Source: Streptomyces collinus (GTDB taxonomy: Bacteria > Actinomycetota > Actinomycetes > Streptomycetales > Streptomycetaceae). Taken from it: 64,000 bases of DNA. The stretch covers positions 8,184,001 to 8,248,000 of the forward strand of contig NZ_CP133771.1 in assembly GCF_031348265.1 (NCBI RefSeq), written 5' to 3'. The position numbers were made by a program, and so were the translations under genes. Shown here in pieces: positions 17,088-29,676 of the stretch; the stretch's first letter is position 1, and each line of letters begins with the position of its first letter. Under the pieces are notes generated by a model. The model was given only the letters and a program-made list of their open reading frames with translations. It was not told where the DNA came from and made no database searches.

Positions 17088-18551
17088 TCAGTCCCCGGCG
17101 AGCCGGGCCTGCGCGGCGTGCCACCGCTCGGTCCCGCCCCGGGGCTCGTACCGGGTGAGCGGCTGCGTGTTCACGAGCAGCCGACGCATTCCGGCCAGGT
17201 CGCCGACCAGTCCGTGCGCCCGTGCCTGCACGAGGACGTTGCCCAGCGCGGCGGCCTCGGTCGGCCCGGCCACCACCGGCAGCCCGCACGCGTCGGCGGT
17301 CAGCTGGCACAGCAGGGCGTTGCGCGTGCCGCCGCCGACCACGTGCACGACGTCGACCGCGTGTCCGGCCAGCCGCTGGGCGTCCTGCACGGCCTTGCGG
17401 TGGGCGAGGGCGAGGGAGTCGAGGATGCAGCGCGTCACCTCGGCCGGCGACTCCGGCACGGGCTGCCCCGAGAGCCGGCACGCCTCGGCGATCCGCTCCG
17501 GCATCCGCCCGGGCGCGAGGAACGCCGCGTCCCCCGCGTCCACGACCGAGCGCAGCGCCGGAGCCTTGGACGCCTTCAGCAGCAGCGCGCCCAGGTCCGT
17601 CTCGCCCCAGGACCGCACGCACTCCTGGAGCAGCCAGAGCCCCATGATGTTCCGCAGGTAGCGGACCGTGCCGTCCAGTCCCAGCTCGTTGGTGAAGTTG
17701 GCGGCCCGGCTCTCCTCGGTCAGCACCGGTGCGTCCAGCTCCAGACCGGCCAGCGACCAGGTGCCGGTGCAGATGTAGGCGAACCGCTCGCCCGACGCCG
17801 GTACGGCGGCGACCGCGGAGGCGGTGTCGTGCGACCCGACGGCCGTCACCGGCACGGGACCGGCGAGCCCGGTCTCCTCCAGCACCTCGCCGCGCAGCAG
17901 CCCCGCCGGATCGCCGGGCTGCCGCAGCGGCGCGAACAGGTCCAGGTCGATGCCCAGCCGGGAGGCGACGTCGTACGCCCAGTCGCGGGTGCGGGGATCG
18001 ATCAACTGCGTCGTGGACGCGTTGGTCAGCTCCGTGCCCTGCTCGCCGGTCAGCCAGTACGTCAGCAGGTCCGGCATCAGCAACAGCCGCCGGGCCTCGT
18101 CGAGCTGGGCCGTGGAGCGGGCGGCCGTGAGCTGGTACAGGGTGTTGAAGGGCGCGTACTGCAACCCGGTCGCGGCGTACAGCTCCTCCGCGGGCACGGT
18201 CGCCCACACCTTCTCCGCGACGCCCTCGGTCCGCGGGTCCCGGTAGTGCACGGGGTTGCCGAGCAGTGCCCCGTCCGCGTCCAGCAGCCCGTAGTCCACG
18301 GCCCAGCTGTCGATGCCGACGGAGTCGAGTCGTCCACCGCAGTGGGCACCCGCTGCCCGCAGCCCGTCCAGCACTCCGGCGTACAGCCCGAGCACGTCCC
18401 AGCGCAGCCCCTCGGGCACCCGGACGGGCCGGTTGGGGAACCGGTGCGCCTCGGCGAGTTCCAGGCTGTCCGGGCCGACGCGGCCGACCATGACGCGCCC
18501 GCTGGACGCGCCGAGGTCGACCGCGGCGTACGACTTCTCGGCGGCGCTCAT
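17088..18551 (-). CDS. rhaB: L-rhamnulokinase
   Basis: 487 residues, typical for FGGY kinases of the RhaB group. The N-terminus AAVDLGASSGRVMVGRVG is the phosphate 1 loop. Further diagnostic stretches are SVGIDSWAVDYGLLDADG, AVGSHDTASAVAAVPAS, CTGTWSLAGLELDAP and the adenosine loop HVVGGGTRNALLCQLTADA. It phosphorylates L-rhamnulose to L-rhamnulose 1-phosphate. Its ATG overlaps the stop of the upstream aldolase-dehydrogenase gene by four bases, and it is followed by lutA after 70 bp. Confidence 0.95.
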   Translation of the reverse strand: MSAAEKSYAAVDLGASSGRVMVGRVGPDSLELAEAHRFPNRPVRVPEGLRWDVLGLYAGVLDGLRAAGAHCGGRLDSVGIDSWAVDYGLLDADGALLGNPVHYRDPRTEGVAEKVWATVPAEELYAATGLQYAPFNTLYQLTAARSTAQLDEARRLLLMPDLLTYWLTGEQGTELTNASTTQLIDPRTRDWAYDVASRLGIDLDLFAPLRQPGDPAGLLRGEVLEETGLAGPVPVTAVGSHDTASAVAAVPASGERFAYICTGTWSLAGLELDAPVLTEESRAANFTNELGLDGTVRYLRNIMGLWLLQECVRSWGETDLGALLLKASKAPALRSVVDAGDAAFLAPGRMPERIAEACRLSGQPVPESPAEVTRCILDSLALAHRKAVQDAQRLAGHAVDVVHVVGGGTRNALLCQLTADACGLPVVAGPTEAAALGNVLVQARAHGLVGDLAGMRRLLVNTQPLTRYEPRGGTERWHAAQARLAGD

Positions 18552-20587
18552 CGCAGGAAGGCGGCCGCGACGCCGGCGTCGACGGGGATGTGCAGACCGG
18601 TCGTGTGGGTGAGATCCCCACCGGTCAGCGCGAACACGGCGTTGGCCACGTGCTCGGGCAGCACCTCGCGCTTGAGGATGGTCCGCTGGGCGTAGAACTC
18701 ACCCAGCTTCTCCTCCTCCACCCCGTACACGGCGGCCCGCTTGGCGCCCCACCCGCCGGCGAAGATCCCCGACCCGCGTACGACACCGTCCGGGTTGACC
18801 CCGTTGACGCGGATGCCGTGCTCGCCCAGCTCGGCGGCGAGCAGCCGCACCTGGTGCGCCTGGTCGGCCTTGGTGGCGGAGTAGGCGATGTTGTTGGGAC
18901 CGGCGAACACGGCGTTCTTCGAGGCGATGTAGACGATGTCACCGCCCAGCTCCTGGGCGGTCATCACCCGGGCGGCTTCCCGCGACACCAGGAAGGACCC
19001 GCGCGCCATGATGTCGTGCTGGAGGTCCCAGTCCTTGGCGGAGGTCTCCAGCAGCGGCTTGGAGATCGAGATGCCCGCGTTGTTGACGACGAGGTCCACC
19101 CCGCCGAAGGCCAGCACCGCCGCCCGGAAGGCCTCGGCGATCTGCTCCTCGGAGGTGACGTCCACCGTCACGGCGACGGCCCTGTCGGGCCCGCCCAGCT
19201 CCTCGGCGACGGCCTCGGCGTTCTCCGCGTCGAGATCGGCGACGATCACACACGCGCCCTCGGCCACGAGCCGGTGCGCGATGGCCTTCCCGATGCCGCT
19301 GCCGGCACCCGTCACCAGCGCCACCCGGGTCGCCAGCGCCTTGGGCTTCGGCATCCGCTGGAGCTTGGCCTCCTCCAGCGCCCAGTACTCGATCCGGAAC
19401 TTCTCGGACTCCTCGATCGGGGCGTAGGCGGAGACGGCCTCGGCCCCGCGCATCACGTTGATGGCGTTGACGTAGAACTCGCCCGCGACCCGGGCGGTCT
19501 GCTTGTCCTTGCCGAAGGAGAACATGCCCACGCCCGGCACCAGCACGATCGCCGGGTCGGCGCCGCGCATGGCGGGGGAGTCGGGTTCGGCGTGCCGCTC
19601 GTAGTAGGCGGCGTACTCCTCGCGGTACCGCGCGTGCAGTTCCTTCAGCCGGGCGATCGCCTCGTCGAGCGGGGCGCTCGGCGGCAGGTCCAGCACCAGC
19701 GGCCGGACCTTGGTCCGCAGGAAGTGGTCCGGGCAGGACGTGCCGAGCGCGGCGAGCCGCGGGTGCTCCGCGCTCGCGAGGAAGTCGAGCACGACCTCGG
19801 AGTCGTCGAAGTGCCCGACCTGGGGCCGGTCCTTCGAGGCGACGGCCCGCACGTACGGGGCGAGCGCGGCGGCCCGCTCCCGCCGCTCCGCTGCGCCCAG
19901 CGCGGCGTACCCCTCGATCACCGGACCGAAGGGCTCGGGCTTGCCCCGCTCGGCGAGGAACGTCTCGGCGGTCCGGATGATGTGCAGCGAGTTCCGCTCG
20001 CACTCCTCGGAGGTGTCACCCCAGGCGGTGATCCCGTGACCGCCGAGCACGCACCCGATGGCCTGCGGATTGGCCTCCTTCACGGCGGCGATGTCCAGCC
20101 CCAGCTGGAACCCGGGCCGCCGCCACGGCACCCACACCACGCTGTCCCCGAAGCACTCGGCGGTCAGCTTCTCCCCGTCGGCGGCGCAGGCGAGCGCGAT
20201 CCCCGAGTCCGGGTGCAGATGATCGACGTGCGCGGCCCCGACCAGCCCGTGCATCGCGGTGTCGATGGACGGGGTGGCCCCGCCCTTCCCGTGCAGGCAG
20301 TAGTCGAACGCGGCGACCATCTCGTCCTCGCGCTCGACCCCCGGGTACACGTCCACGAGCGCCCGCATCCGGTCCAGCCGCAGCACGGCCAGCCCTGCCT
20401 CGGTCAGCGTCCCGAGATCACCGCCGGACCCCTTGACCCACATCAGCTCGACGTCACCACCGGTGGCGGGGTCGGTCTCGGTGCCCTTGGCGGAGGCGTT
20501 GCCCCCGGCGTAGTTGGTGTTCCGGGGATCGGCCCCGAGCCGGTGCGACCGGGCGAGGAGAGCGGCAGCTTCGGGATGAACAGCCAT
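18548..20587 (-). CDS. rhaEW: Bifunctional rhamnulose-1-phosphate aldolase / lactaldehyde dehydrogenase
   Basis: 679 residues from the ATG at 20587. Residues 1-430 are a class II aldolase with the zinc ligands in HVDHLHPDSGIALAC and CVLGGHGITAWGD. Residues 430-679 are an SDR: VALVTGAGSGIGKAIAHRL binds NAD, NNAGIS follows, and the catalytic Tyr-Lys pair is in NIAYSATKADQ. The order matches the RhaEW (YuxG) fusion known from B. subtilis, where the aldolase half yields DHAP and L-lactaldehyde and the dehydrogenase half oxidises lactaldehyde to lactate. Its stop overlaps the rhaB start. A 106-bp gap to rhaI contains a dispersed repeat. The downstream lutABC genes use the lactate. Confidence 0.93.
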   Translation of the reverse strand: MAVHPEAAALLARSHRLGADPRNTNYAGGNASAKGTETDPATGGDVELMWVKGSGGDLGTLTEAGLAVLRLDRMRALVDVYPGVEREDEMVAAFDYCLHGKGGATPSIDTAMHGLVGAAHVDHLHPDSGIALACAADGEKLTAECFGDSVVWVPWRRPGFQLGLDIAAVKEANPQAIGCVLGGHGITAWGDTSEECERNSLHIIRTAETFLAERGKPEPFGPVIEGYAALGAAERRERAAALAPYVRAVASKDRPQVGHFDDSEVVLDFLASAEHPRLAALGTSCPDHFLRTKVRPLVLDLPPSAPLDEAIARLKELHARYREEYAAYYERHAEPDSPAMRGADPAIVLVPGVGMFSFGKDKQTARVAGEFYVNAINVMRGAEAVSAYAPIEESEKFRIEYWALEEAKLQRMPKPKALATRVALVTGAGSGIGKAIAHRLVAEGACVIVADLDAENAEAVAEELGGPDRAVAVTVDVTSEEQIAEAFRAAVLAFGGVDLVVNNAGISISKPLLETSAKDWDLQHDIMARGSFLVSREAARVMTAQELGGDIVYIASKNAVFAGPNNIAYSATKADQAHQVRLLAAELGEHGIRVNGVNPDGVVRGSGIFAGGWGAKRAAVYGVEEEKLGEFYAQRTILKREVLPEHVANAVFALTGGDLTHTTGLHIPVDAGVAAAFLR

Positions 20588-20693: not shown

Positions 20694-21872
20694 TCACGCA
20701 CCCCATCCGGCCTGCTGCCCACCAACCCGCTCGGCGACGATCTTCTCGCCCCACCCGGACCGCCGATACGCAGCGAGAGGCTCGGGGTCCAACCCCATCT
20801 CCTCCCGCACCTCGCGCAGCAACGGCCGCACATCCGTGTTGTACGCATCCATCACCACGGCGTTCGCCTCCAGCACATCCCCCGCCCGCTGCGCCGCCCG
20901 CAACGCGTCACCGTCGACCAGCAGTGCCTTCGCCGTGGCCTCCTGCACGTTCATCACCGACCGGATGATCGCCGGGATCTTCGCCTCGATGTTGTGGCAC
21001 TGGTCGAGCATGAATGCGACCTCGGGTGAGAACCCACCGCCCCGCACGACCTCGTACATGATCCGGAACAGCTGGAACGGATCCGCCGCCCCGACCATGA
21101 GGTCGTCGTCCGCGTAGAACCGCGAGTTGAAGTCGAACCCGCCGAGCTTCCCCTCACGCAGCAGCGTCGCCACGATGAACTCGATGTTCGTCCCCGGCGC
21201 GTGATGCCCCGTGTCGACGACGACCTGCGCCTTGGGCCCCAGCTTCAGGCAGTGGGCATAGGCGGTGCCCCAGTCCGGCACGTCCGTCGTGTAGAACGCA
21301 GGCTCGAAGAACTTGTACTCCAGCAGCATCCGCTGCCCGTCGCCGAGCCGCTCGTAGACCTCGGCCAGCCCCTCGGCCAGCCGGTCCTGCCGCCCCCGGA
21401 TGTCGTCCTGGCCGGGATAGTTCGTGCCGTCGGCGAACCACAGCTTCAGATCCGCCGAGCCCGTCGCGTCCATGATGTCGACGCACTCCAGCAGATGATC
21501 GACGGCCTTCCGCCGCACGGAGGCCTCCGGATGACAGATGCTCCCGAGCTTGTAGTCGTCGTCCTGGAACGTGTTGGAGTTGATCGCCCCGAGCTTCACG
21601 CCCCGCTGCTCGGCGTGCTTGGCCAGCGCCGCGTAGTCGTCGACCTTGTCCCACGGGATGTGCAGGGCCACGGTCGGGGCGACGCCCGTGAACTCGTGCA
21701 CCTTCGCCGCGTCGTCCAGCTTCTCGAACGGGGTGCGCGGCACACCCTGCTGCGCGAAGACCTTGAACCGTGTGCCCGAGTTCCCGTACGCCCACGACGG
21801 CGTCTCGACGGCCTGTGTCTTGAGAGCGGCCTTCGCCGCGGCGAGCTCGGTCACGTCAGGCTCCTGTGACAT
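20694..21872 (-). CDS. rhaI: L-rhamnose isomerase
   Basis: 392 residues, of the actinobacterial/Rhizobium RhaI type rather than the E. coli RhaA type. Recognisable stretches are WAYGNSGTRFKVFAQQGVP, LGAINSNTFQDDDYKLGSIC, LKLWFADGTNYPGQDD, VVDTGHHAPGTNIEFIVA and GGFDFNSRFYADDDLMVGA; these supply the His, Asp and Glu metal ligands of a xylose-isomerase-like TIM barrel. It converts L-rhamnose to L-rhamnulose. It is the first gene of the leftward rhaI-rhaEW-rhaB-lutABC series and faces the divergent importer operon across 241 bp that contain two operator-like palindromes. Confidence 0.95.
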   Translation of the reverse strand: MSQEPDVTELAAAKAALKTQAVETPSWAYGNSGTRFKVFAQQGVPRTPFEKLDDAAKVHEFTGVAPTVALHIPWDKVDDYAALAKHAEQRGVKLGAINSNTFQDDDYKLGSICHPEASVRRKAVDHLLECVDIMDATGSADLKLWFADGTNYPGQDDIRGRQDRLAEGLAEVYERLGDGQRMLLEYKFFEPAFYTTDVPDWGTAYAHCLKLGPKAQVVVDTGHHAPGTNIEFIVATLLREGKLGGFDFNSRFYADDDLMVGAADPFQLFRIMYEVVRGGGFSPEVAFMLDQCHNIEAKIPAIIRSVMNVQEATAKALLVDGDALRAAQRAGDVLEANAVVMDAYNTDVRPLLREVREEMGLDPEPLAAYRRSGWGEKIVAERVGGQQAGWGA

Positions 21873-21893: not shown

Positions 21894-21905
21894 TGAAACG
21901 ATTCA
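21894..21905. promoter_or_regulatory. Candidate LacI-family (RhaR) operator O1
   Basis: TGAAACGATTCA has TGAA/TTCA arms around a central CpG, the classic LacI-family layout, and extends to a longer CTGAAT...ATTCAG symmetry at 21889-21906. It lies 22 bp upstream of the rhaI start, where binding would block the leftward operon. Confidence 0.65.
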
Positions 21906-22059: not shown

Positions 22060-22071
22060 TGAAACCTTTCA
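22060..22071. promoter_or_regulatory. Candidate LacI-family (RhaR) operator O2
   Basis: TGAAACCTTTCA shares TGAAAC at the left and TTCA at the right with O1 and has perfect TGAAA/TTTCA arms. It lies just downstream of the predicted start of transcription of the importer operon and 42 bp before the rhaT ATG, a road-block position. Confidence 0.6.
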
Positions 22072-22113: not shown

Positions 22114-23631
22114 ATGACCCACCCGTCCACCACGGGTCCGGCCCCGGTCCTCGCACTGAAGGACGTCTCCAAGTCCTTCGGCGTGGTCCGTGCACTGCGG
22201 GACGTCTCCCTGGAGCTGTTCCCCGGGGAGGTGCACGCACTCGCCGGTGAGAACGGTGCCGGCAAGTCCACCCTCATCAAGACCCTCGCCGGGGTGCACC
22301 GCCCGGACGCCGGCCAGGTGCTGCTCGACGGTGCGCCCGTCGCCTTCCACGGCCCCGGCGACGCCCGCGACGCCGGCATCGCCGTGATCTACCAGGAGCC
22401 CACGCTCTTCCCCGACCTGTCGATCGCCGAGAACATCTACATGGGCCGCCAGCCGCGCCGCGCCCTCGGCCGCATCGACCACAAGGCCACCCACAACGCG
22501 ACAGCCGCCCTGATGGAGCGCCTCGGTGTCGAACTCGACCCCGACCGGCCCGCCCGCGGTCTGTCCATCGCCGACCAGCAGATCGTCGAGATCGCCAAGG
22601 CGCTCTCCTTCGACGCCCGCGTCCTGATCATGGACGAGCCGACGGCCGCCCTCACCGGCAGCGAGGTCGCCCGCCTCTTCGGCGTCGTGCGCACCCTGCG
22701 CGACCAGGGCGCCGCCGTGCTGTTCATCTCCCACCGGCTGGAGGAGATCTTCGAGATCTGCCGGCGGGTCACCACCCTGCGCGACGGCGCCTGGATCGCC
22801 AGCGAGCCGCTGGAGGGCATGACCGAGGACGACCTCGTGCGCCGCATGGTCGGCCGCGACCTCGACGAGCTGTACCCCAAGCAGGACGTGAAGCCGGGCG
22901 AGGTCGCCCTGAGCGTGCACCGGCTGACCCGCGAGGGGGTCTTCACCGACGTCTCCTTCGAGGTCCGGCACGGCGAGATCGTCGGTCTGGCCGGACTCGT
23001 CGGCGCCGGGCGCACGGAGGTCGCCCGGGCCGTGTTCGGCATCGACCGCTGGGACGCCGGCGAGGTCTCCGTCCACGGCAAGGCCCTGGTCAACGGAGCG
23101 CCCTCCACCGCCATGGCCGCCGGACTCGCCCTGGTCCCCGAGGACCGGCGTGCCCAGGGCCTGGTGATGGACATGTCCATCGAGCGGAACATCGGGCTGA
23201 CCGGGCTGCGTACGACCGTGAAGGCCGGGCTCATGGACCGCGGCGCCGAACGCAGCCGCTCCCTGGACTGGGCCGTCAGGCTCCAGGTGAAGTACGCCCG
23301 GATCGCCGACACGGTCAACACGCTCTCCGGCGGCAACCAGCAGAAGGTCGTGCTCGCCAAGTGGCTGGCCACCGGCCCGAAGGTGCTGATCGTCGACGAG
23401 CCCACCCGCGGCATCGACGTCGGCACCAAGGCCGAGGTGCACCGGCTGCTGTCCCAGCTGGCCGCGGACGGCGTGGCCGTCCTGATGATCTCCTCCGACC
23501 TGCCCGAGATCCTCGGCATGGCCGACCGCGTGCTGGTGATGCACGAGGGCCGCCTCACCGCCGAGATCCCCCGCACCGACGCCACCGAGGAAACCGTGAT
23601 GGCCGCAGCCACCGGGAGGGCCGCCGCATGA
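22114..23631 (+). CDS. rhaT: Rhamnose ABC importer ATP-binding protein
   Basis: 505 residues, a tandem sugar-type ATPase. The first domain has [10 protein letters not shown], a Q-loop in [20 protein letters not shown], signature variant [15 protein letters not shown] and Walker [13 protein letters not shown]. The second has [16 protein letters not shown] (degenerate Walker A) and [15 protein letters not shown]. It is the first gene of the rightward rhaTPQS operon, divergent from rhaI. RhaT here is the ABC ATPase of the Rhizobium nomenclature, not the E. coli proton symporter. Its TGA overlaps the first permease ATG. Confidence 0.92.
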
Positions 23632-24668
23632 CGGTCGTCACCCCGCAAGAGGCCCCCGTGGCCGACGTGCCCAAGTCGAGCGGCACCCGGCTGGTCGACC
23701 GCGTCTTCAAGATGCGCGAACTCGCCATCCTGCTCGTCTTCCTGGTGATGATCGCCGTCACCCAGGCCGGCAACAGCCAGTTCCTGTCCGAGCAGGGCAT
23801 CAAGGACCTGCTGCTGAACGCGACCATCCTCGTCCTGGTCGCCACCGGCCAGTCCCTCGTCGTCATCACCCGCAACGTCGACCTGTCCGTCGGATCCACG
23901 CTCGGCATCAGCGCGTTCGCCGCCGGCACCTACCTCCAGGGCGGCGGCAACCCGGTCGTGGCGATCGCGCTGGCCGTGCTGCTGGGCATCGGCTTCGGAC
24001 TGCTCAACGGACTGCTCGTCAGCCTCGGCCAGGTGCCCGCGCTCGTCGTCACCCTCGGCACGCTCTACATCATCCGCGGCATCGACTCCATCTGGGTCGG
24101 CTCCCGGCAGATCACCGCGGCCGACCTGCCCGGCGGATTCGTGGACTTCGGCTCCGGCGGCATCTCCGCGGTGCCGTATCTGGCGCTGATCGCGCTGGCG
24201 GTGCTCGTCGCCACCGCCTACTACCTCAAGCACTTCGCCGGCGGACGCGAGCTGTACGCGCTCGGCTCCAACCCCGAGGCCGCCCGCCTCGCCGGCATCC
24301 CCGTCCGCAAGCGGATCCTCGTCGCGTACACCTTCTGCGGCGCCCTCGCCGGACTCGCCGGCGCGATGTACCTCGCCCGGTTCGGCAACGTCGACTCCGG
24401 CACCGGCAACGGCTACGAACTGACCGTCGTCAGCGCGGTCGTGGTCGGCGGCGTCGTCTTCACCGGCGGCTCCGGCAGCGTCTACGGCGCCGCCCTCGGC
24501 GCGCTGCTGCTGACCTCCATCAACAGCGTGCTGCCCGCCCTCGGCGTCAGCTCCGTCTGGGTGCTCGCCATCAACGGCATCCTGCTCATCCTCGCGATCG
24601 CGGTCGACCGGATCGTCGCGCTGCGCGTGGCCTCCGCCCTGAAGAAGAGGAACGCCCGCCATGGCTGA
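23628..24668 (+). CDS. rhaP: Rhamnose ABC importer permease 1
   Basis: 346 residues, about nine membrane segments, BPD_transp_2 family with [21 protein letters not shown] near residue 85 and [19 protein letters not shown] near 285. It begins at the ATG overlapping the rhaT stop (ATGA); a longer frame reading through rhaT is a shadow. It pairs with the next permease to form a heterodimeric channel, as in the rhizobial RhaP/RhaQ system. Which of the two is RhaP and which RhaQ follows gene order only. Confidence 0.9.
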
Positions 24669-25671
24669 CATCTCCCCGAGCCGAGTGGCCGGCTGGTCCG
24701 GCCTCAAGAGGTGGGATTCCGCCGTCGGCGCCCTGCTCGTCGTGGTCCTGCTCTTCTCCTTCGGCTTCGTCGACGGCTTCGGCAACGCGCTCAACCTGTC
24801 GTTCCTGATCGGCAACACGCTGCCGATCGCGCTGATCGCCCTGCCGATGACACTGCTGGTCGTCTCCGGTGAGATCGACCTGTCGGTCGCCTCCACGGCC
24901 GGTCTGTCCGGTGCCGTGATGGGCGCCCTGTGGAACCAGGGCATGACCATCGAGACGATCATCCCGATCTGCCTGCTGCTCGGCGTCGTGTGCGGGCTGG
25001 TCAACGGGCTGCTGGTGACCAGGCTGGGGCTGCCGTCCCTCGCCGTCACCATCGGCACGCTGGCCGCCTACCGGGGCATCGCGCAGATCGTGCTCGGCTC
25101 CGACGCGGTGACCGACTTCCCGACGCAGTACCTGGACTTCGCGGCCGGGCGCATCGGCGACACGTTCGTCCCGTACGCCCTGCTGCCGTTCCTCGTCCTG
25201 CTCGCCATCGCCGTGGTCGCGCTGCACGCCACACCCTTCGGCCGGTCGCTGTTCGCCATCGGGGCGAGCGAGGAGGCCGCCCGCTTCGCCGGCATCCGGG
25301 TCAAACGGCAGAAGCTGATCCTGTTCACCCTGACCGGTCTGATGGCCTCCCTGACCGGCATCTTCTGGGCGCTGCACTACGCCAGCGCCCGCTACGACAA
25401 CGCCACCGGCCTCGAACTGTCCGTCGTGGCCGCCGTGCTGCTCGGCGGCATCGACTTCGACGGCGGCAAGGGCACGTTGGGCGGTGCGGTCGCCGGAGTG
25501 TTCCTCCTCGGCGCACTGCAGAACGTGATGAGCCTCCAGGACGTCTCCGCCCAGTCCCAGATCGTCGTCACCGGCGTCCTGCTCGTTCTGTCCGTGCTCG
25601 GCCCCCGGGTCGTACGGCAGATCTCCACAGCGAGGGCGGGCCGCAGAGCCGCCTCGACTCCCACCTCGTAA
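24661..25671 (+). CDS. rhaQ: Rhamnose ABC importer permease 2
   Basis: 336 residues, hydrophobic, with VVSGEIDLSVASTAGLSGAVMG and AAVLLGGIDFDGGKGTLGGAVAG as the two conserved permease regions. Its ATG at 24661 lies inside the end of the previous permease gene (8-base overlap), a sign of tight translational coupling. It is followed 29 bp later by the binding-protein gene. Confidence 0.9.
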   Translation: MADISPSRVAGWSGLKRWDSAVGALLVVVLLFSFGFVDGFGNALNLSFLIGNTLPIALIALPMTLLVVSGEIDLSVASTAGLSGAVMGALWNQGMTIETIIPICLLLGVVCGLVNGLLVTRLGLPSLAVTIGTLAAYRGIAQIVLGSDAVTDFPTQYLDFAAGRIGDTFVPYALLPFLVLLAIAVVALHATPFGRSLFAIGASEEAARFAGIRVKRQKLILFTLTGLMASLTGIFWALHYASARYDNATGLELSVVAAVLLGGIDFDGGKGTLGGAVAGVFLLGALQNVMSLQDVSAQSQIVVTGVLLVLSVLGPRVVRQISTARAGRRAASTPTS

Positions 25672-25700: not shown

Positions 25701-26783
25701 ATGCGTAAGTCAACCCTGCGTCGCAGCTGCGCGGCCCTCGCCACCGCCACCTCCCTCGCGCTCGCGCTCACCGCCTGCGGCGGCACGACCAAGAAGGACG
25801 TCGCGAACGAGGGCGCCTCCGCCGCCACCGCCGGCAAGGCCGACCCGAACGCGGCCACCAAGAAGGGCCTCACCGTCGGGTTCCTGCCCAAGCAGGTCAA
25901 CAACCCGTACTTCACCAGCGCCGACAAGGGCGGCGAGAAGGCGCTCAAGGAGCTGGGCTCCAGCTACAAGGAGGTCGGCCCGTCCAGCGCGACCGACACC
26001 GCCGGGCAGGTCTCCTACGTCAACACGCTCACCCAGCAGCAGGTCGACGCCATGGCCGTGTCCGCGCAGGACCCCGGCGCGCTGTGCACCGCCCTCAAGC
26101 AGGCCATGAAGAACGACATCAAGGTCGTCACCTACGACTCCGACACCACGCCCGATTGCCGCAACGCCTTCGTCTCCCAGGCCTCCGCCGAGGACCTGGG
26201 CCGCACCGAGGTGCAGCTGCTCGCCAAGCAGATCGACTACAAGGGCGAGATCGCGATCCTGTCCGCCGCGCAGACCGCGACGAACCAGAACACCTGGATC
26301 GACTTCATGAAGGACGAGCTGAAGAAGCCCGAGTACAAGAACATGAAGCTGGTGAAGACCGCGTACGGCAACGACGACGCCCAGCAGTCCTTCCAGCAGA
26401 CCCAGGGCCTGCTCCAGGAGTACCCGAACCTCAAGGGGATCATCTCCCCGACCACGGTCGGCATCAAGGCCGCCGCCCAGTACCTGTCGGGCTCCAAGTA
26501 CAAGGGCAAGGTCAAGCTGACCGGCCTCGGCACCCCGAACGACATGCGCAAGTACGTCAAGAACGGCACCGTCGAGGCGTTCGAGCTGTGGGACCCGGCC
26601 AAGCTCGGCGAGCTGGCCGCCCGCACCGCCGTCGCCCTTTCCTCCGGGCAGATCACCGGCAAGGAGGGCGAGACGTTCAAGGCCGGCTCCATGGGCGAGT
26701 ACACCATCGGCAAGGACGGCGTGATCAGCCTCGGCAAGCCGACCGTGTTCGACGCCGAGAACATCGACCAGTTCAACTTCTAG
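25701..26783 (+). CDS. rhaS: Rhamnose ABC importer substrate-binding lipoprotein
   Basis: 360 residues. The signal peptide (RKSTLRRSCAALATATSLALA) ends in LTAC, a lipobox. The mature protein has the binding-protein pattern VGFLPKQVNNPYFTSADKGG, VSAQDPGALCTALKQAM and TYDSDTTPDCRNAFVSQAS, and ends in IGKDGVISLGKPTVFDAEN, the signature of the RhaS/LsrB-like sugar binders. AAAGGA at 25687-25692 supports the start. It captures rhamnose outside the membrane for RhaTPQ. In some annotations the name rhaS means an AraC regulator; here it means the binding protein. Confidence 0.92.
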   Translation: MRKSTLRRSCAALATATSLALALTACGGTTKKDVANEGASAATAGKADPNAATKKGLTVGFLPKQVNNPYFTSADKGGEKALKELGSSYKEVGPSSATDTAGQVSYVNTLTQQQVDAMAVSAQDPGALCTALKQAMKNDIKVVTYDSDTTPDCRNAFVSQASAEDLGRTEVQLLAKQIDYKGEIAILSAAQTATNQNTWIDFMKDELKKPEYKNMKLVKTAYGNDDAQQSFQQTQGLLQEYPNLKGIISPTTVGIKAAAQYLSGSKYKGKVKLTGLGTPNDMRKYVKNGTVEAFELWDPAKLGELAARTAVALSSGQITGKEGETFKAGSMGEYTIGKDGVISLGKPTVFDAENIDQFNF

Positions 26784-26800: not shown

Positions 26801-27121
26801 ATGCAGCGCGTGTGCTTCCTGCTGAAGGTCCGGGCGGAGCGCCTCGACGAGTACCGCGAGCGGCATGCCGCGGTATGGCCCGAGATGCTCCAGGCGCTCT
26901 CGGAGACCGGCTGGCACAACTACTCGCTCTTCCTGCGCGAGGACGGACTGCTCGTCGGCTACCTGGAGACCGAGGACTTCGCGGCCGCCCGGGCCGGCAT
27001 GGAAGCCACCGACGTCAACGCCCGCTGGCAGGCGGAGATGGCGCCGTTCTTCGAGTCGCTGGACGGCGCCCGGCCCGACGCGGCCATGAAACCGCTCACC
27101 GAAGTGTTCCACCTCGCATGA
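26801..27121 (+). CDS. rhaM: L-rhamnose mutarotase
   Basis: 106 residues, the normal length of the RhaM/RhaU family. The fold signature is VCFLLKVRAERLDEYRERHA with AVWPEMLQALSETGWHNYSL and the final MKPLTEVFHLA; the conserved His in RHAAVWPEM and the aromatic residues line the active site. It interconverts alpha and beta anomers of L-rhamnose so that the isomerase receives the right form. GGGAGG at 26789-26794 precedes the ATG. It follows rhaS by 17 bp. Confidence 0.95.
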   Translation: MQRVCFLLKVRAERLDEYRERHAAVWPEMLQALSETGWHNYSLFLREDGLLVGYLETEDFAAARAGMEATDVNARWQAEMAPFFESLDGARPDAAMKPLTEVFHLA

Positions 27122-27137
27122 CGATGGAGTCCACGAG

Positions 27138-28562
27138 ATGCACAGACGTACGTTGCTGGCCGCCGCCCTCGCGGGAGCAGTGGTGACCCCCGCCTTCGCC
27201 TCCGGCACGGCACGGGCCGCCGACCCCGGCCCCTCGGTCACCCGGACCGGCACCACCACGCTCGACGGCCAGGCCCTCTTCTTCGTGTCCTACGACGGGC
27301 TGGTCAACAACAACGCGTTCCAGAAGAACGGCCTGCTGACCTACAAGGGCTACCAGTACGCCGTCTGGTACACCGCCGACCGCAATGCCGTCGTCGGCCG
27401 CCGGGCCCTCGGCGCGAGCACCTGGTCGACCGTGAAGGTAGGGCACACGCTGCGCTACAACGACTCCCACAACGTCATCTCCATGGGCGTCTCCAAGGCC
27501 GACGGCCGGCTGCACCTCAACATGGACTCCCACAGCGACGGCTTCACCTACGTCAAGTCGGTCGCCGGCCTCATGGACAACCCCGGGGGCCTGAGCTGGA
27601 CCGCGAGCCGCTTCGGCGCGCCCCAGTCGACGCTCGACGGCCTGGCCCTGACCTCGCAGTTCACCTATCCCCAGTTCGTCTCCACCCCGGACGGCAAGCT
27701 CCAGCTGAGCTATCGCGTCGCCGTCTCCGGCAACGGCCGCAACGCCCTCGCCGAGTACGACGGCACGAAGTGGACCAACCTCGGCGAGTGGTCCGGCTCG
27801 ACGGGCACGTACACCAGCGAGCACGGCTCCTCGACGGCCCGCAACATGTACCTGCACGGCATCGACTACGACCGGAACGGCCGGCTGCACTCCTTCTTCA
27901 CCTGGCGCGAGCAGAACGGCGCCGTGATGTGCAACAGCGGAGGCATCACCAACCACGACACCGGCTACGTCTACTCCGACGACCGGGGCCGCACCTGGCG
28001 CAACAACGCAGGCACCGTCGTCGGCGTGACGGGCGGCTCGGACAAGGTGTCCGTGACCGACGCCGGTCTGGTCGTGGACCCGCTCAACCCGGACCACTCC
28101 CTGATGAACCAGGAGAGCCAGTTCACCGACTCCGCGGGCCGGCCGCACGCGATCATCTCCTATGTCCCCGGCCGCTTCGGCCAGTGCACCACGAACTACG
28201 TCGCGAACCGGACCGCGAACGGCCGTGCCTTCCACGTCCGCAGGAACGCCTCCGGCACCTGGCAGAAGACCGAGATACCGGTCCCGCTGAACTCCAGCCA
28301 GCGCACCAAGCTGATCCTGGACACGTACGACAACGCGTATGCGATCTTCCCGTTCGGCCGGATCGCGGGGGCCTCCGCTGCCTCCGGGTACACCGACTGG
28401 AGGGTCCTCTTCGACGGCAGCGGCCTCAACGCCTTCGGCGAGGTCGTCATCGACGAGACGCGGGTCGCCCAGGACGGGGTGCTGTCCTTCATGTACCAGG
28501 AGAAGTCCAGCGGTACGACGCCCTCGGCGCTGCACGTGATCGACTTCCGCCTGCCCGCCTGA
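27138..28562 (+). CDS. Secreted BNR-repeat beta-propeller protein, candidate rhamnose-releasing polysaccharide lyase
   Basis: 474 residues. A Sec-type signal (HRRTLLAAALAGAVVTPAFA, cleavage after ARA near residue 30) precedes a BNR_4-type propeller: SYDGLVNNNAFQKNGLLTYK, YNDSHNVISMGVSKADGRLH, YPQFVSTPDGKLQLSYR, MYLHGIDYDRNGRLHSFFTW and YSDDRGRTWRNNAG (an Asp-box). It lacks a cell-wall anchor, so it is released. It sits inside the rhamnose uptake operon, 16 bp after the mutarotase. BNR_4 folds occur in polysaccharide lyases acting on rhamnose-linked uronic acids (families such as PL24, PL25, PL42; named from memory), so it may free rhamnose from a plant or algal gum. The reaction is inference; the conserved His and Tyr residues fit but were not aligned. 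Confidence 0.75.
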   Translation: MHRRTLLAAALAGAVVTPAFASGTARAADPGPSVTRTGTTTLDGQALFFVSYDGLVNNNAFQKNGLLTYKGYQYAVWYTADRNAVVGRRALGASTWSTVKVGHTLRYNDSHNVISMGVSKADGRLHLNMDSHSDGFTYVKSVAGLMDNPGGLSWTASRFGAPQSTLDGLALTSQFTYPQFVSTPDGKLQLSYRVAVSGNGRNALAEYDGTKWTNLGEWSGSTGTYTSEHGSSTARNMYLHGIDYDRNGRLHSFFTWREQNGAVMCNSGGITNHDTGYVYSDDRGRTWRNNAGTVVGVTGGSDKVSVTDAGLVVDPLNPDHSLMNQESQFTDSAGRPHAIISYVPGRFGQCTTNYVANRTANGRAFHVRRNASGTWQKTEIPVPLNSSQRTKLILDTYDNAYAIFPFGRIAGASAASGYTDWRVLFDGSGLNAFGEVVIDETRVAQDGVLSFMYQEKSSGTTPSALHVIDFRLPA

Positions 28563-28650
28563 CCGCATCCGGTTCCCGGGGCGGCGTGCCGGTAGTGTGA
28601 AGCCGCCCCGGCCGCCGCCCCCCTCGTCTCCCTCTGGAGGTCCCTGCCCG

Positions 28651-29676
28651 ATGGCCCAGTCGGTGGGTATCAAGGACGTCGCCCGCGTCGCCGGAGTCTC
28701 CGTCGGCACGGTCTCGAACGTGATCAACCGCCCGGACACGGTCGCGACCGAGACCCGGGCCCGCGTGCTGTCCGCGATAGACCGGCTCGGCTACGTCCGC
28801 AGCGAGTCGGCCCGCCAGCTGCGCGCCGGCCGCAGCCGCATCATGGGGCTGCTCGTCCTCGACATGGGCAACCCCTTCTTCGTCGACGTGGCGCGCGGGG
28901 CCGAGCGCGCCGCCCGCCGGGCCGGGCTCGGCGTGATGGTCTGCAACAGCGCCCAGGACCCGGGCGAGGAGGCCGACTACCTGTCGCTCTTCGCCGAGCA
29001 GCGGGTGCGCGGCGTCCTGCTCACGCCCGCCGACGCGACCGGCCGCAACATCGAGGCGTTCCGCCGGCACGGGATCCCGTTCGTCCTGGTCGACCGGGTC
29101 GCCGAGGGCACCACCGAATGCTCCGTCTCCGTGGACGACGTGGCGGGCGGCGCCCTGGCCGTACGCCACCTCGTCGACGCCGGGCACCGCTCCCTCGCCT
29201 ACGTCAGCGGCCCGCCCGGCCTGAACCAGGTCCGCGACCGGCGCACCGGCGCCCTCGAAGCGCTCGCCGAGGCCGGGCTCGGGCCCGACGCGCTGCGCGA
29301 GCTGCCCACCGAACGGCTGGACGTCGCCGCCGGCCGCGACGCCGGGGCCCGCCTGCTCGGCCTCGCCGACCGGCCGACCGCCGTGTTCTGCGCCAACGAC
29401 CTGCTCGCCCTCGGCGTCCTGCAGGCCATGTACGCGGCCGGTGTCGACGTCCCCGACGACCTCGCCATCGTCGGCTACGACGACATCGAGTTCGCCGCCG
29501 CCGCTGCCGTCCCGCTCACCTCGGTGCGGCAGCCCGCCGTCACCATGGGCGCGATGGCCGCCGACCTCCTCCTGGAGGAGACGGAGGAGGAGAGCGAGGG
29601 GCGGGCACACGAGCACCGCAGGGTCGTCCTCCAGCCCGAGCTGGTGGTCCGCCGCTCCAGCCTGTCGGCCCGCTGA
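28651..29676 (+). CDS. rhaR: LacI-family regulator of rhamnose use
   Basis: 341 residues from the ATG at 28651, which has GGAGG at 28636-28640. The N-terminal HTH is IKDVARVAGVSVGTVSNVIN followed by the hinge SARQLRAGRSRIMGLLV. The sugar-binding core shows LDMGNPFFVDVARGAER, FVLVDRVAEG, VFCANDLLALGVLQAM and VGYDDIEFAAAA. It is the last gene of the rightward rhamnose set and has an 88-bp gap of its own with a TAGTGT box at 28592-28597. Repressing rhaI and rhaT from O1 and O2 is inferred from position and operator shape. The inducer could be rhamnose, rhamnulose or lactaldehyde. Confidence 0.9.
   Translation: MAQSVGIKDVARVAGVSVGTVSNVINRPDTVATETRARVLSAIDRLGYVRSESARQLRAGRSRIMGLLVLDMGNPFFVDVARGAERAARRAGLGVMVCNSAQDPGEEADYLSLFAEQRVRGVLLTPADATGRNIEAFRRHGIPFVLVDRVAEGTTECSVSVDDVAGGALAVRHLVDAGHRSLAYVSGPPGLNQVRDRRTGALEALAEAGLGPDALRELPTERLDVAAGRDAGARLLGLADRPTAVFCANDLLALGVLQAMYAAGVDVPDDLAIVGYDDIEFAAAAAVPLTSVRQPAVTMGAMAADLLLEETEEESEGRAHEHRRVVLQPELVVRRSSLSAR

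What the first reader, a model, noticed from the sequence alone, without database searches (positions are those of the whole stretch)
27138..28562. Secreted BNR propeller in the rhamnose uptake operon: possible rhamnose-releasing lyase or hydrolase
A signal peptide, a BNR_4-like propeller and a position between the mutarotase and the rhamnose regulator suggest it supplies the rhamnose that the importer takes up, from plant gums or other rhamnose-capped polymers. BNR_4 propellers occur in lyase families that attack rhamnose-uronic acid linkages. The enzymatic role of this actinobacterial member seems not to be defined.
Basis: inference. Interest (0 to 1): 0.7.

Follow-up and report, generated by a model that had tools for sequence, protein, structure and literature searches.

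The report
Rhamnose-uncapping lyase in rhamnose operon
This Streptomyces gene most likely makes a secreted enzyme that snips rhamnose caps off plant gum-like sugars so that the neighbouring importer can take the rhamnose in; it looks like a new bacterial member of a known enzyme family rather than a new kind of thing, and its activity has yet to be tested.

Summary
In detail: ORF 27138-28562 (+, 474 aa) has an RR-type leader and a BNR_4 propeller (2.6e-82), 16 nt behind rhaM and 88 nt before a LacI regulator. The best solved relative, by sequence and fold, is FoRham1, the PL42 L-rhamnose-alpha-1,4-D-glucuronate lyase. Twelve of 13 tested active-site side chains are identical, catalytic His85 (H111), His105, Asp83, Arg166 and Tyr202 among them; Tyr26 is Phe61. 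The histidine of the alternative GH145 hydrolase site is Tyr69. Position is conserved (39 of 40 wide loci), and some operons without the gene keep scars of it. A paralogue elsewhere overlaps an endo-beta-1,6-galactanase gene, and this genome has relatives of endo-beta-1,6- and exo-beta-1,3-galactanases, which points to arabinogalactan-protein caps. Against a firm substrate claim: Bacteroides PL42 lyases with the same site cut wine AGP but not gum arabic. No GH88/GH105 was found in this genome, so perhaps only the rhamnose is harvested. Bacterial PL42 lyases are already known, so this is a new member of a known kind; activity is inferred. A leaderless branch that keeps the active site is the most unusual sideline.

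The parts
27138..28562 (+). PL42-type L-rhamnose-alpha-1,4-D-glucuronate lyase candidate, 474 aa; lyase site D109 H111 H132 Y177 R193 S197 Y238 R257 N324 Q325 R389 E435; F61 in place of FoRham1 Tyr26; Tyr69 in place of BT3686 His48
27138..27218 (+). N-terminal export leader (27 aa, twin-arginine-like HRRTLL, A-R-A cleavage site)
   Evidence: read from the sequence; RR motif in 30 of 40 relatives
27126..27129 (+). GGAG ribosome-binding-like site in the 16-nt gap behind rhaM
26801..27121 (+). rhaM, L-rhamnose mutarotase-like
   Evidence: TIGR02625 1.2e-17, below its cut-off
25701..26783 (+). rhaS, rhamnose ABC binding protein
   Evidence: TIGR02637 2.1e-149, over cut-off
24661..25671 (+). ABC permease 2 of the rhamnose importer (assigned by place)
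   Evidence: ORF; conserved place
23628..24668 (+). ABC permease 1 of the rhamnose importer (assigned by place)
   Evidence: ORF within 23361-24668, start as used; conserved place
22114..23631 (+). ABC ATPase of the rhamnose importer (assigned by place and sequence)
   Evidence: ORF; conserved place
28651..29676 (+). LacI-family regulator, probably the actinomycete RhaR
   Evidence: Pfam LacI + Peripla_BP_3; directly downstream in 80 of 80 named relatives
20694..21872 (-). rhaI, L-rhamnose isomerase
   Evidence: TIGR02635 2.2e-203, over cut-off
18548..20587 (-). bifunctional rhamnulose-1-P aldolase / dehydrogenase (RhaEW type)
   Evidence: TIGR02632 over cut-off; start trimmed by the model match
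17088..18551 (-). rhaB, rhamnulokinase
   Evidence: TIGR02627 3.2e-144, below its cut-off
21894..21905 (.). candidate LacI operator TGAAACGATTCA upstream of rhaI
22060..22071 (.). candidate LacI operator TGAAACCTTTCA upstream of the importer genes

Best explanation
A secreted exo-acting PL42 lyase. It binds the non-reducing Rha-alpha-1,4-GlcA cap of type II arabinogalactan side chains (plant AGPs such as gum arabic or wine AGP) or the free disaccharide. Arg193, with His132 and Tyr177, neutralises the GlcA carboxylate; His111, held by Asp109, takes the C5 proton and hands it to the glycosidic oxygen (syn beta-elimination). Free L-rhamnose is released and 4,5-unsaturated GlcA stays on the polymer. 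RhaM equilibrates the anomers, the RhaS-type ABC importer takes the sugar up, and RhaI, RhaB and the aldolase/dehydrogenase break it down. The LacI-type regulator ties the set to rhamnose. Shown here: sequence, fold ranking, active-site identity, gene order. Inferred: chemistry, substrate, export, regulation.
For: Best solved relative is FoRham1 over nearly the whole mature protein and first in both fold comparisons. Twelve of 13 tested side-chain positions of FoRham1's site identical, both subsites included (roles from PMC8377490 and PMC10951650, passages). The 12 hold in 40 of 40 relatives except one Ser170-equivalent that is Cys (L042). Operon place in 39 of 40 wide loci, and in named loci rhaM directly upstream in 79 of 80 and the regulator downstream in 80 of 80. 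RhaS is in 63 of the 68 genomes that have the gene. AGP link: a 58% identical paralogue in L031 overlaps by 4 nt a gene matching a solved secreted endo-beta-1,6-galactanase (4.4e-217), with a GH43 protein related to beta-1,3-galactanases near by; the window's own genome has relatives of that endo-beta-1,6-galactanase (4.5e-285) and of galactan 1,3-beta-galactosidases (7bys 4.6e-62, 5flw 1.1e-42).
Against: No assay. FoRham1 is only 26-31% identical. Tyr26, which bonds rhamnose, is Phe in the window protein and all 40 relatives, as in BT3686. The site does not tell the substrate: in the stretch compared BT3686 shares every one of the 12 residues that could be seen (10; the other two lie outside the stretch), yet its lyase face and those of two further Bacteroides members cut wine AGP and not gum arabic AGP, perhaps needing a sulfated cap (PMC8406133 section 7). 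51 of 114 genomes with RhaS lack the gene. Three members lie outside the operon (L031, L107, L108). Five genomes have the gene but no RhaS at 1e-60 (G085, G086, G101, G102, G181), of which G086 and G102 are partial or broken copies. The AGP context of the paralogue is from one genome (1 of 392 at 1e-190). The GH79 search rang in no control.
Confidence: 0.75

Rival explanations
1. A lyase of the same fold and mechanism whose main substrate is not an AGP cap: Rha-uronate ends of rhamnogalacturonan I, ulvan pieces, or a microbial exopolysaccharide.
For: A LacI-like site (TGAGACGTTTCA) lies about 105 nt before a PL4 rhamnogalacturonan lyase gene in this genome, though inside a candidate ORF of the other strand; another lies beside a gene with a LacI-type sensor domain and a GH78 rhamnosidase gene, so rhamnose from pectin is probably harvested too. 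Phe61 instead of Tyr26 may change the rhamnose end.
Against: GlcA-side residues Arg220 and Ser170 and rhamnose-side Asn275, Gln276, Arg331, Glu381 of FoRham1 are kept; FoRham1 did nothing detectable to RG-I oligosaccharides with terminal Rha and only traces to ulvan (PMC8377490 section 8).
Confidence: 0.18
2. A GH145-like rhamnohydrolase acting from the posterior face, as BT3686 does on gum arabic.
For: Same fold (BT3686 Z 35.7); His is present at the His48 place in 9 of 40 Streptomyces relatives.
Against: The window protein has Tyr69 there, as FoRham1 has Tyr34; Bacteroides members without that His had no rhamnosidase activity on gum arabic AGP (PMC8406133 section 7).
Confidence: 0.03
3. A non-catalytic sugar-binding propeller (lectin-like) that presents rhamnose to the cell.
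For: Seven-bladed lectins from Photorhabdus rank next by fold after the lyases (Z about 26).
Against: The catalytic residues are identical in 40 of 40 relatives, which binding alone would not need.
Confidence: 0.03

Closest known systems
FoRham1, PL42 L-rhamnose-alpha-1,4-D-glucuronate lyase of Fusarium oxysporum (PDB 7ESK/7ESL/7ESN)
   Same: Fold, lyase site, Tyr at the GH145 His48 place
   Different: 26-31% identity; Phe61 for Tyr26, Asn260 for Pro223 (a main-chain contact); bacterial; sits in a rhamnose uptake operon
GH145/PL42 proteins of Bacteroides (BT3686, BACCELL_00856, BACPLE_00338)
   Same: Fold and anterior lyase residues; Phe at the Tyr26 place (BT3686); lyase activity on wine AGP reported (PMC8406133 section 7)
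   Different: Weaker sequence match (3e-17 and less); BT3686 has a second, hydrolytic posterior site with His48; their lyase face did not cut gum arabic AGP; B. plebeius pairs the lyase with a GH105, whereas no GH88/GH105 was found in this genome
PL24 and PL25 ulvan lyases (LOR_107, Uly1, PLSV_3936)
   Same: Propeller fold and His-His-Asp/Arg/Tyr core (PMC10951650, passages)
   Different: Lower fold scores (Z 27-28); reported as endo-acting ulvan lyases (PMC8377490 section 13)
RhaR regulon with RhaFGHJ importer of Actinomycetales (Rodionova et al. 2013, PMC3870299)
   Same: LacI-type regulator, ABC importer, RhaEW (passages and section 16)
   Different: Section 16 names alpha-rhamnosidases in these regulons, and the word BNR does not occur in the main text; its supplementary tables and figures were not seen

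Membership tests
PL42 (CAZy) | BNR_4 propeller closest to FoRham1/GH145 proteins | tested here: met
   model mean pLDDT 71.8
PL42 (CAZy) | Base/acid His85, second His105, bridging Asp83 | tested here: met
   H111, H132, D109
PL42 (CAZy) | Neutraliser Arg166 with Tyr150, Tyr202, Arg220 | tested here: met
   R193, Y177, Y238, R257
PL42 (CAZy) | Rhamnose subsite Tyr26, Asn275, Gln276, Arg331, Glu381 of FoRham1 | tested here: inconclusive
   N324, Q325, R389, E435 kept; Tyr26 is Phe61, as in BT3686
PL42 (CAZy) | Release of Rha and unsaturated GlcA from Rha-GlcA caps | not testable with these tools
   needs an assay
GH145-type posterior-site rhamnohydrolase | Catalytic His48 on the posterior face | tested here: not met
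   Tyr69 at that column
PL24 ulvan lyase | Closest relationship to LOR_107/Uly1 | tested here: not met
   Z 27.7 against 38.0 for PL42; no PL24 chain among the 8 phmmer matches up to E 10
PL25 ulvan lyase | Closest relationship to PLSV_3936 | tested here: not met
   Z 27.0; no PL25 chain among the 8 phmmer matches up to E 10
Rhamnose utilisation operon | Rhamnose-specific importer, isomerase and aldolase beside the gene | tested here: met
   TIGR02637, TIGR02635, TIGR02632 over cut-off

The most novel reading that the evidence does not exclude
Streptomyces has evolved a cytoplasmic form of PL42. In L050, L063 and L105 the gene begins right behind rhaM without any leader, the tested lyase residues are kept, divergence still favours silent changes, and two of the three genomes (L063, L105) have lost all or most of the rhamnose importer. 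Such an enzyme would cleave imported Rha-GlcA (FoRham1's preferred substrate) inside the cell and release unsaturated GlcA there. The same three also carry His at the GH145 hydrolase place, so some Streptomyces members could have two active sites on one propeller.
Probability: 0.15. Interest if true: 0.6.

Novelty: new member of a known kind. Interest (0 to 1): 0.42.

Why it matters
It gives a testable function to a gene carried by about a third of the Streptomyces genomes sampled (68 of 199) and explains why it sits in the rhamnose operon: these soil bacteria would collect rhamnose caps from plant arabinogalactan and, if the lack of GH88/GH105 seen in this one genome is general, leave the rest of the cap behind. 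It would also supply bacterial enzymes for AGP analysis, with natural variants (leaderless, His/Tyr at the second site) for studying how one propeller face or the other became active, and could tell whether Phe or Tyr at the Tyr26 place goes with the gum arabic or the wine AGP preference.

Tried and rejected
GH145 hydrolase: rejected for the window protein, His48 place is Tyr69. PL24/PL25 membership: lower fold scores and no sequence match. Use of the unsaturated product by the host: no GH88/GH105 found in this genome (control rang in 3 of 14), and its only KduI-family match is IolB, so a KduI route is not supported; other enzymes for it (for example GH154, recalled) were not tested. The GH79 search was uninformative (no control rang). 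Operators: 11 sites with at most one mismatch against 1 for the reversed control; the motif is typical of many LacI regulators (recalled), so the sites near PL4 (L134), near a LacI-type sensor domain and GH78 (L131) and 34 nt before an ABC binding protein gene (L130) are leads, not a shown regulon. The HTH of the L131 regulator was not matched in the stretch given. Of the other sites, L132 lies before a CE2/GDSL gene, L133 inside a long ORF, L135 some 550 nt from a sodium symporter gene, one inside the alpha/beta-hydrolase gene at window 30771; L124 and L125 were not read. The Fisher value (1.7e-14) ignores relatedness and is not a probability. Pairwise dN/dS (0.26-0.61 in 12 pairs) is rough: third positions are G+C-rich and saturated, so dS is probably too low and the ratios too high. 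Phylum search with A1 at 1e-20: only Streptomyces, 6 of 396 genomes, 1 of 236 genera; a looser threshold was not tried, and PL42 in Lentzea is mentioned in print (PMC9120177, one passage). Literature searches listed no assay of an actinobacterial PL42; PL42 appears in a CAZyme table of Streptomyces genomes (PMC11475409, one passage). PMC13169297 was seen in listings only.

Full report
What is there. It starts with an RR-type leader and its body is a BNR_4 propeller at 2.6e-82. On the plus strand run importer ATPase, two permeases, RhaS, RhaM and this gene; the stop of rhaM and the start of this gene are 16 nt apart. A LacI-type regulator follows at 28651, and isomerase, aldolase/dehydrogenase and kinase genes run the other way. 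RhaS, RhaI and the aldolase/dehydrogenase pass their curated cut-offs; RhaM and rhamnulokinase do not.

What it resembles. Against all solved chains the best match is FoRham1, the PL42 lyase of Fusarium, at 3.2e-30 over residues 56-472; the Bacteroides GH145 proteins follow at 3.1e-17 and weaker over about residues 55-338. A fold model from the window protein and 23 close relatives (mean pLDDT 71.8, pTM 0.79; leader and several loops poor) ranks FoRham1 first in Foldseek (4.7e-25) and in VIA-align (Z 38.0, 387 residues, 2.7 A), before BT3686 (35.7), PL24 (27.7) and PL25 (27.0). Differences under 1 in Z are ties; the gap from PL42/GH145 to PL24/PL25 is larger.

Active site. I mapped the residues named for FoRham1 (PMC8377490: abstract, passages, sections 8 and 13; PMC10951650: passages) on an alignment of the window protein, FoRham1, BT3686 and 54 Streptomyces BNR_4 proteins. 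Asp83, His85, His105, Tyr150, Arg166, Ser170, Tyr202, Arg220, Asn275, Gln276, Arg331 and Glu381 are D109, H111, H132, Y177, R193, S197, Y238, R257, N324, Q325, R389 and E435. Tyr26 is F61. Pro223, a main-chain contact, is N260. In the 40 relatives of the same subgroup (L031-L070) the twelve are unchanged except a Cys for Ser170 in L042, and Phe is at the Tyr26 place in 40 of 40. BT3686 also has Phe there and shares the ten of the twelve that its compared stretch covers. The GH145 nucleophile candidate His48 aligns with Tyr69; FoRham1 has Tyr there too. In the relatives that place is Tyr in 31 and His in 9 of 40.

A control within the genus. The 14 other Streptomyces BNR_4 proteins fetched (L071-L084, weaker Pfam scores) keep His85, His105, Tyr150, Arg166 and Tyr202 in 14 of 14, but Asp83 in 2, Gln276 in 12, and Ser170, Arg220, Asn275, Arg331 and Glu381 in none (the alignment is unsure there). 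Five of the 14 were put in the tree and form one side of a branch (96/94). None of the 14 loci has the rhamnose operon (10 show no match, four genes with general ABC or LacI matches of 31-46% lie in L071, and such ABC matches in L076 and L078). So most of the rhamnose and GlcA contacts are not simply a feature of every BNR_4 protein in the genus.

Gene order across genomes. PF15892 was found in 82 of 199 Streptomyces genomes. I divided the matches by score at a wide gap (208 to 126 bits): 68 genomes with the window's subgroup, 17 with weaker matches, 3 with both. The 68 include partial matches (G102) and a broken copy (G086, L106), and the weaker 17 include a short fragment (G169). Of the subgroup's 69 matches, one is the window's; 40 were fetched wide, and 39 of these have the gene between rhaM and the LacI gene, the exception being L031. 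Of the 28 others, 20 have RhaS on the same contig with starts 1.1-1.6 kb apart, 4 have RhaS on another contig and 4 have none. Four of the 28 were later fetched wide: L105 has the operon order, L106 lies next to rhaM, L107 and L108 lie elsewhere. In 80 named loci (all Streptomyces; the best 80 of 301, so close relatives) rhaM is directly upstream in 79 and the regulator directly downstream in 80. RhaS is in 114 of 199 genomes at 1e-60 (113 over its cut-off); 63 of the 68 genomes with the gene have it, 5 do not, and 51 genomes have RhaS without the gene. I fetched 30 RhaS loci from 29 of those 51 genomes. In 15 of the 30 rhaM is followed by the regulator, and I read these gaps; the other 15 lack a match to rhaM or to the regulator there. 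Three of the 15 gaps hold clear remains of the gene (L089, with a leader-like start read by eye and the last 41 residues; L095; L110) and one weak remains (L092). So the gene was lost from the operon at least in these lines: an optional supply module, not a part of the pathway core.

Substrate. FoRham1 acts on Rha-GlcA and gum arabic, traces on ulvan and larch arabinogalactan, none detectable on RG-I oligosaccharides. Two hints point to arabinogalactan here. In L031 a 58% identical paralogue overlaps by 4 nt a gene that matches a solved secreted endo-beta-1,6-galactanase at 4.4e-217, with a GH43-CBM6 protein that matches galactan 1,3-beta-galactosidases (7bys 3.2e-14) and a PL9-like gene some kb away. 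This is one genome (1 of 392 at 1e-190). And the window's own genome has a relative of the same endo-beta-1,6-galactanase (4.5e-285) and of galactan 1,3-beta-galactosidases (4.6e-62), the latter next to a PL4 rhamnogalacturonan lyase gene. Against a firm gum arabic claim stands the Bacteroides work: three PL42/GH145 lyase sites with the same residues cut the Rha-GlcA cap of wine AGP but not of gum arabic AGP, and the authors think a sulfated substrate probable (PMC8406133 section 7). The window protein shares Phe with BT3686 at the Tyr26 place but is nearer to FoRham1 overall. I therefore claim an AGP-type Rha-GlcA cap and leave open which.

Fate of the other product. No GH88/GH105 gene was found in this genome (controls rang), and its only KduI-family match is IolB. 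B. plebeius uses a GH105 for this step. The simplest reading is that this Streptomyces takes the rhamnose and leaves the unsaturated cap, though other enzymes for the cap were not sought.

Regulation. Two palindromes, TGAAACGATTCA (21894) and TGAAACCTTTCA (22060), lie between the divergent rhaI and importer genes; the motif has 11 sites with at most one mismatch in the genome, its reversed control 1. A LacI-type RhaR of Actinomycetales is predicted in print (PMC3870299, passages and section 16); the main text has no BNR entry.

A sideline. In L050, L063 and L105 the gene starts right after rhaM and the stretch before it shows no leader in frame. The tested residues are kept. G101 (L063) and G181 (L105) show no RhaS at 1e-60; L063 shows no importer gene in the locus and L105 keeps pieces of it. 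The leaderless rows count as one group in the tree with moderate support (85/93), but L063 and the other two are not joined in a clade of their own there. L110 holds a decayed copy, leaderless too. This could be a move into the cytosol or a stage of decay; the ratio of changes does not look like free decay, but the estimate is rough.

Verdict. PL42-type lyase for Rha-GlcA caps: the whole account about 0.75. A new member of a known kind in an instructive place.

Noticed in passing
L071-L084 (14 loci; such weaker matches in 17 of 199 Streptomyces genomes): A second set of Streptomyces BNR_4 proteins (425-444 aa with the starts chosen) keeps the His-His-Tyr-Arg-Tyr lyase core but only Gln276 (12 of 14) of the rhamnose-side residues tested; in L072 it lies near ABC binding-protein and permease genes. 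Perhaps lyases for another uronic-acid polymer.
   Followed up: partly
L050:9173-10507, L063:8888-10228, L105:8979-10313: Leaderless PL42 genes with the tested active-site residues intact; two of these genomes show no RhaS importer.
   Followed up: partly
L031:8732-11685: PL42 paralogue overlapping an endo-beta-1,6-galactanase gene, with GH43-CBM6 and PL9-like genes nearby: an arabinogalactan/pectin locus.
   Followed up: yes
L134:2516-5695 (own genome): Beta-1,3-galactanase relative next to a PL4 rhamnogalacturonan lyase gene that has TGAGACGTTTCA about 105 nt before its start.
   Followed up: partly
L131:1329-5920 (own genome): GH78 alpha-rhamnosidase, a gene with a LacI-type sensor domain (HTH not matched in the stretch given) and a perfect TGAAACGTTTCA palindrome.
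   Followed up: partly
window 28587-28606 and several of the gaps L085-L098 printed: A stretch like GGTAGTGTGAAG recurs before the regulator gene, also where the lyase gene is missing; it may be the regulator's own promoter.
   Followed up: no
column of P0001 Tyr69: His/Tyr at the GH145 His48 place varies in Streptomyces PL42 proteins (9 His, 31 Tyr of 40) in several separate branches.
   Followed up: partly
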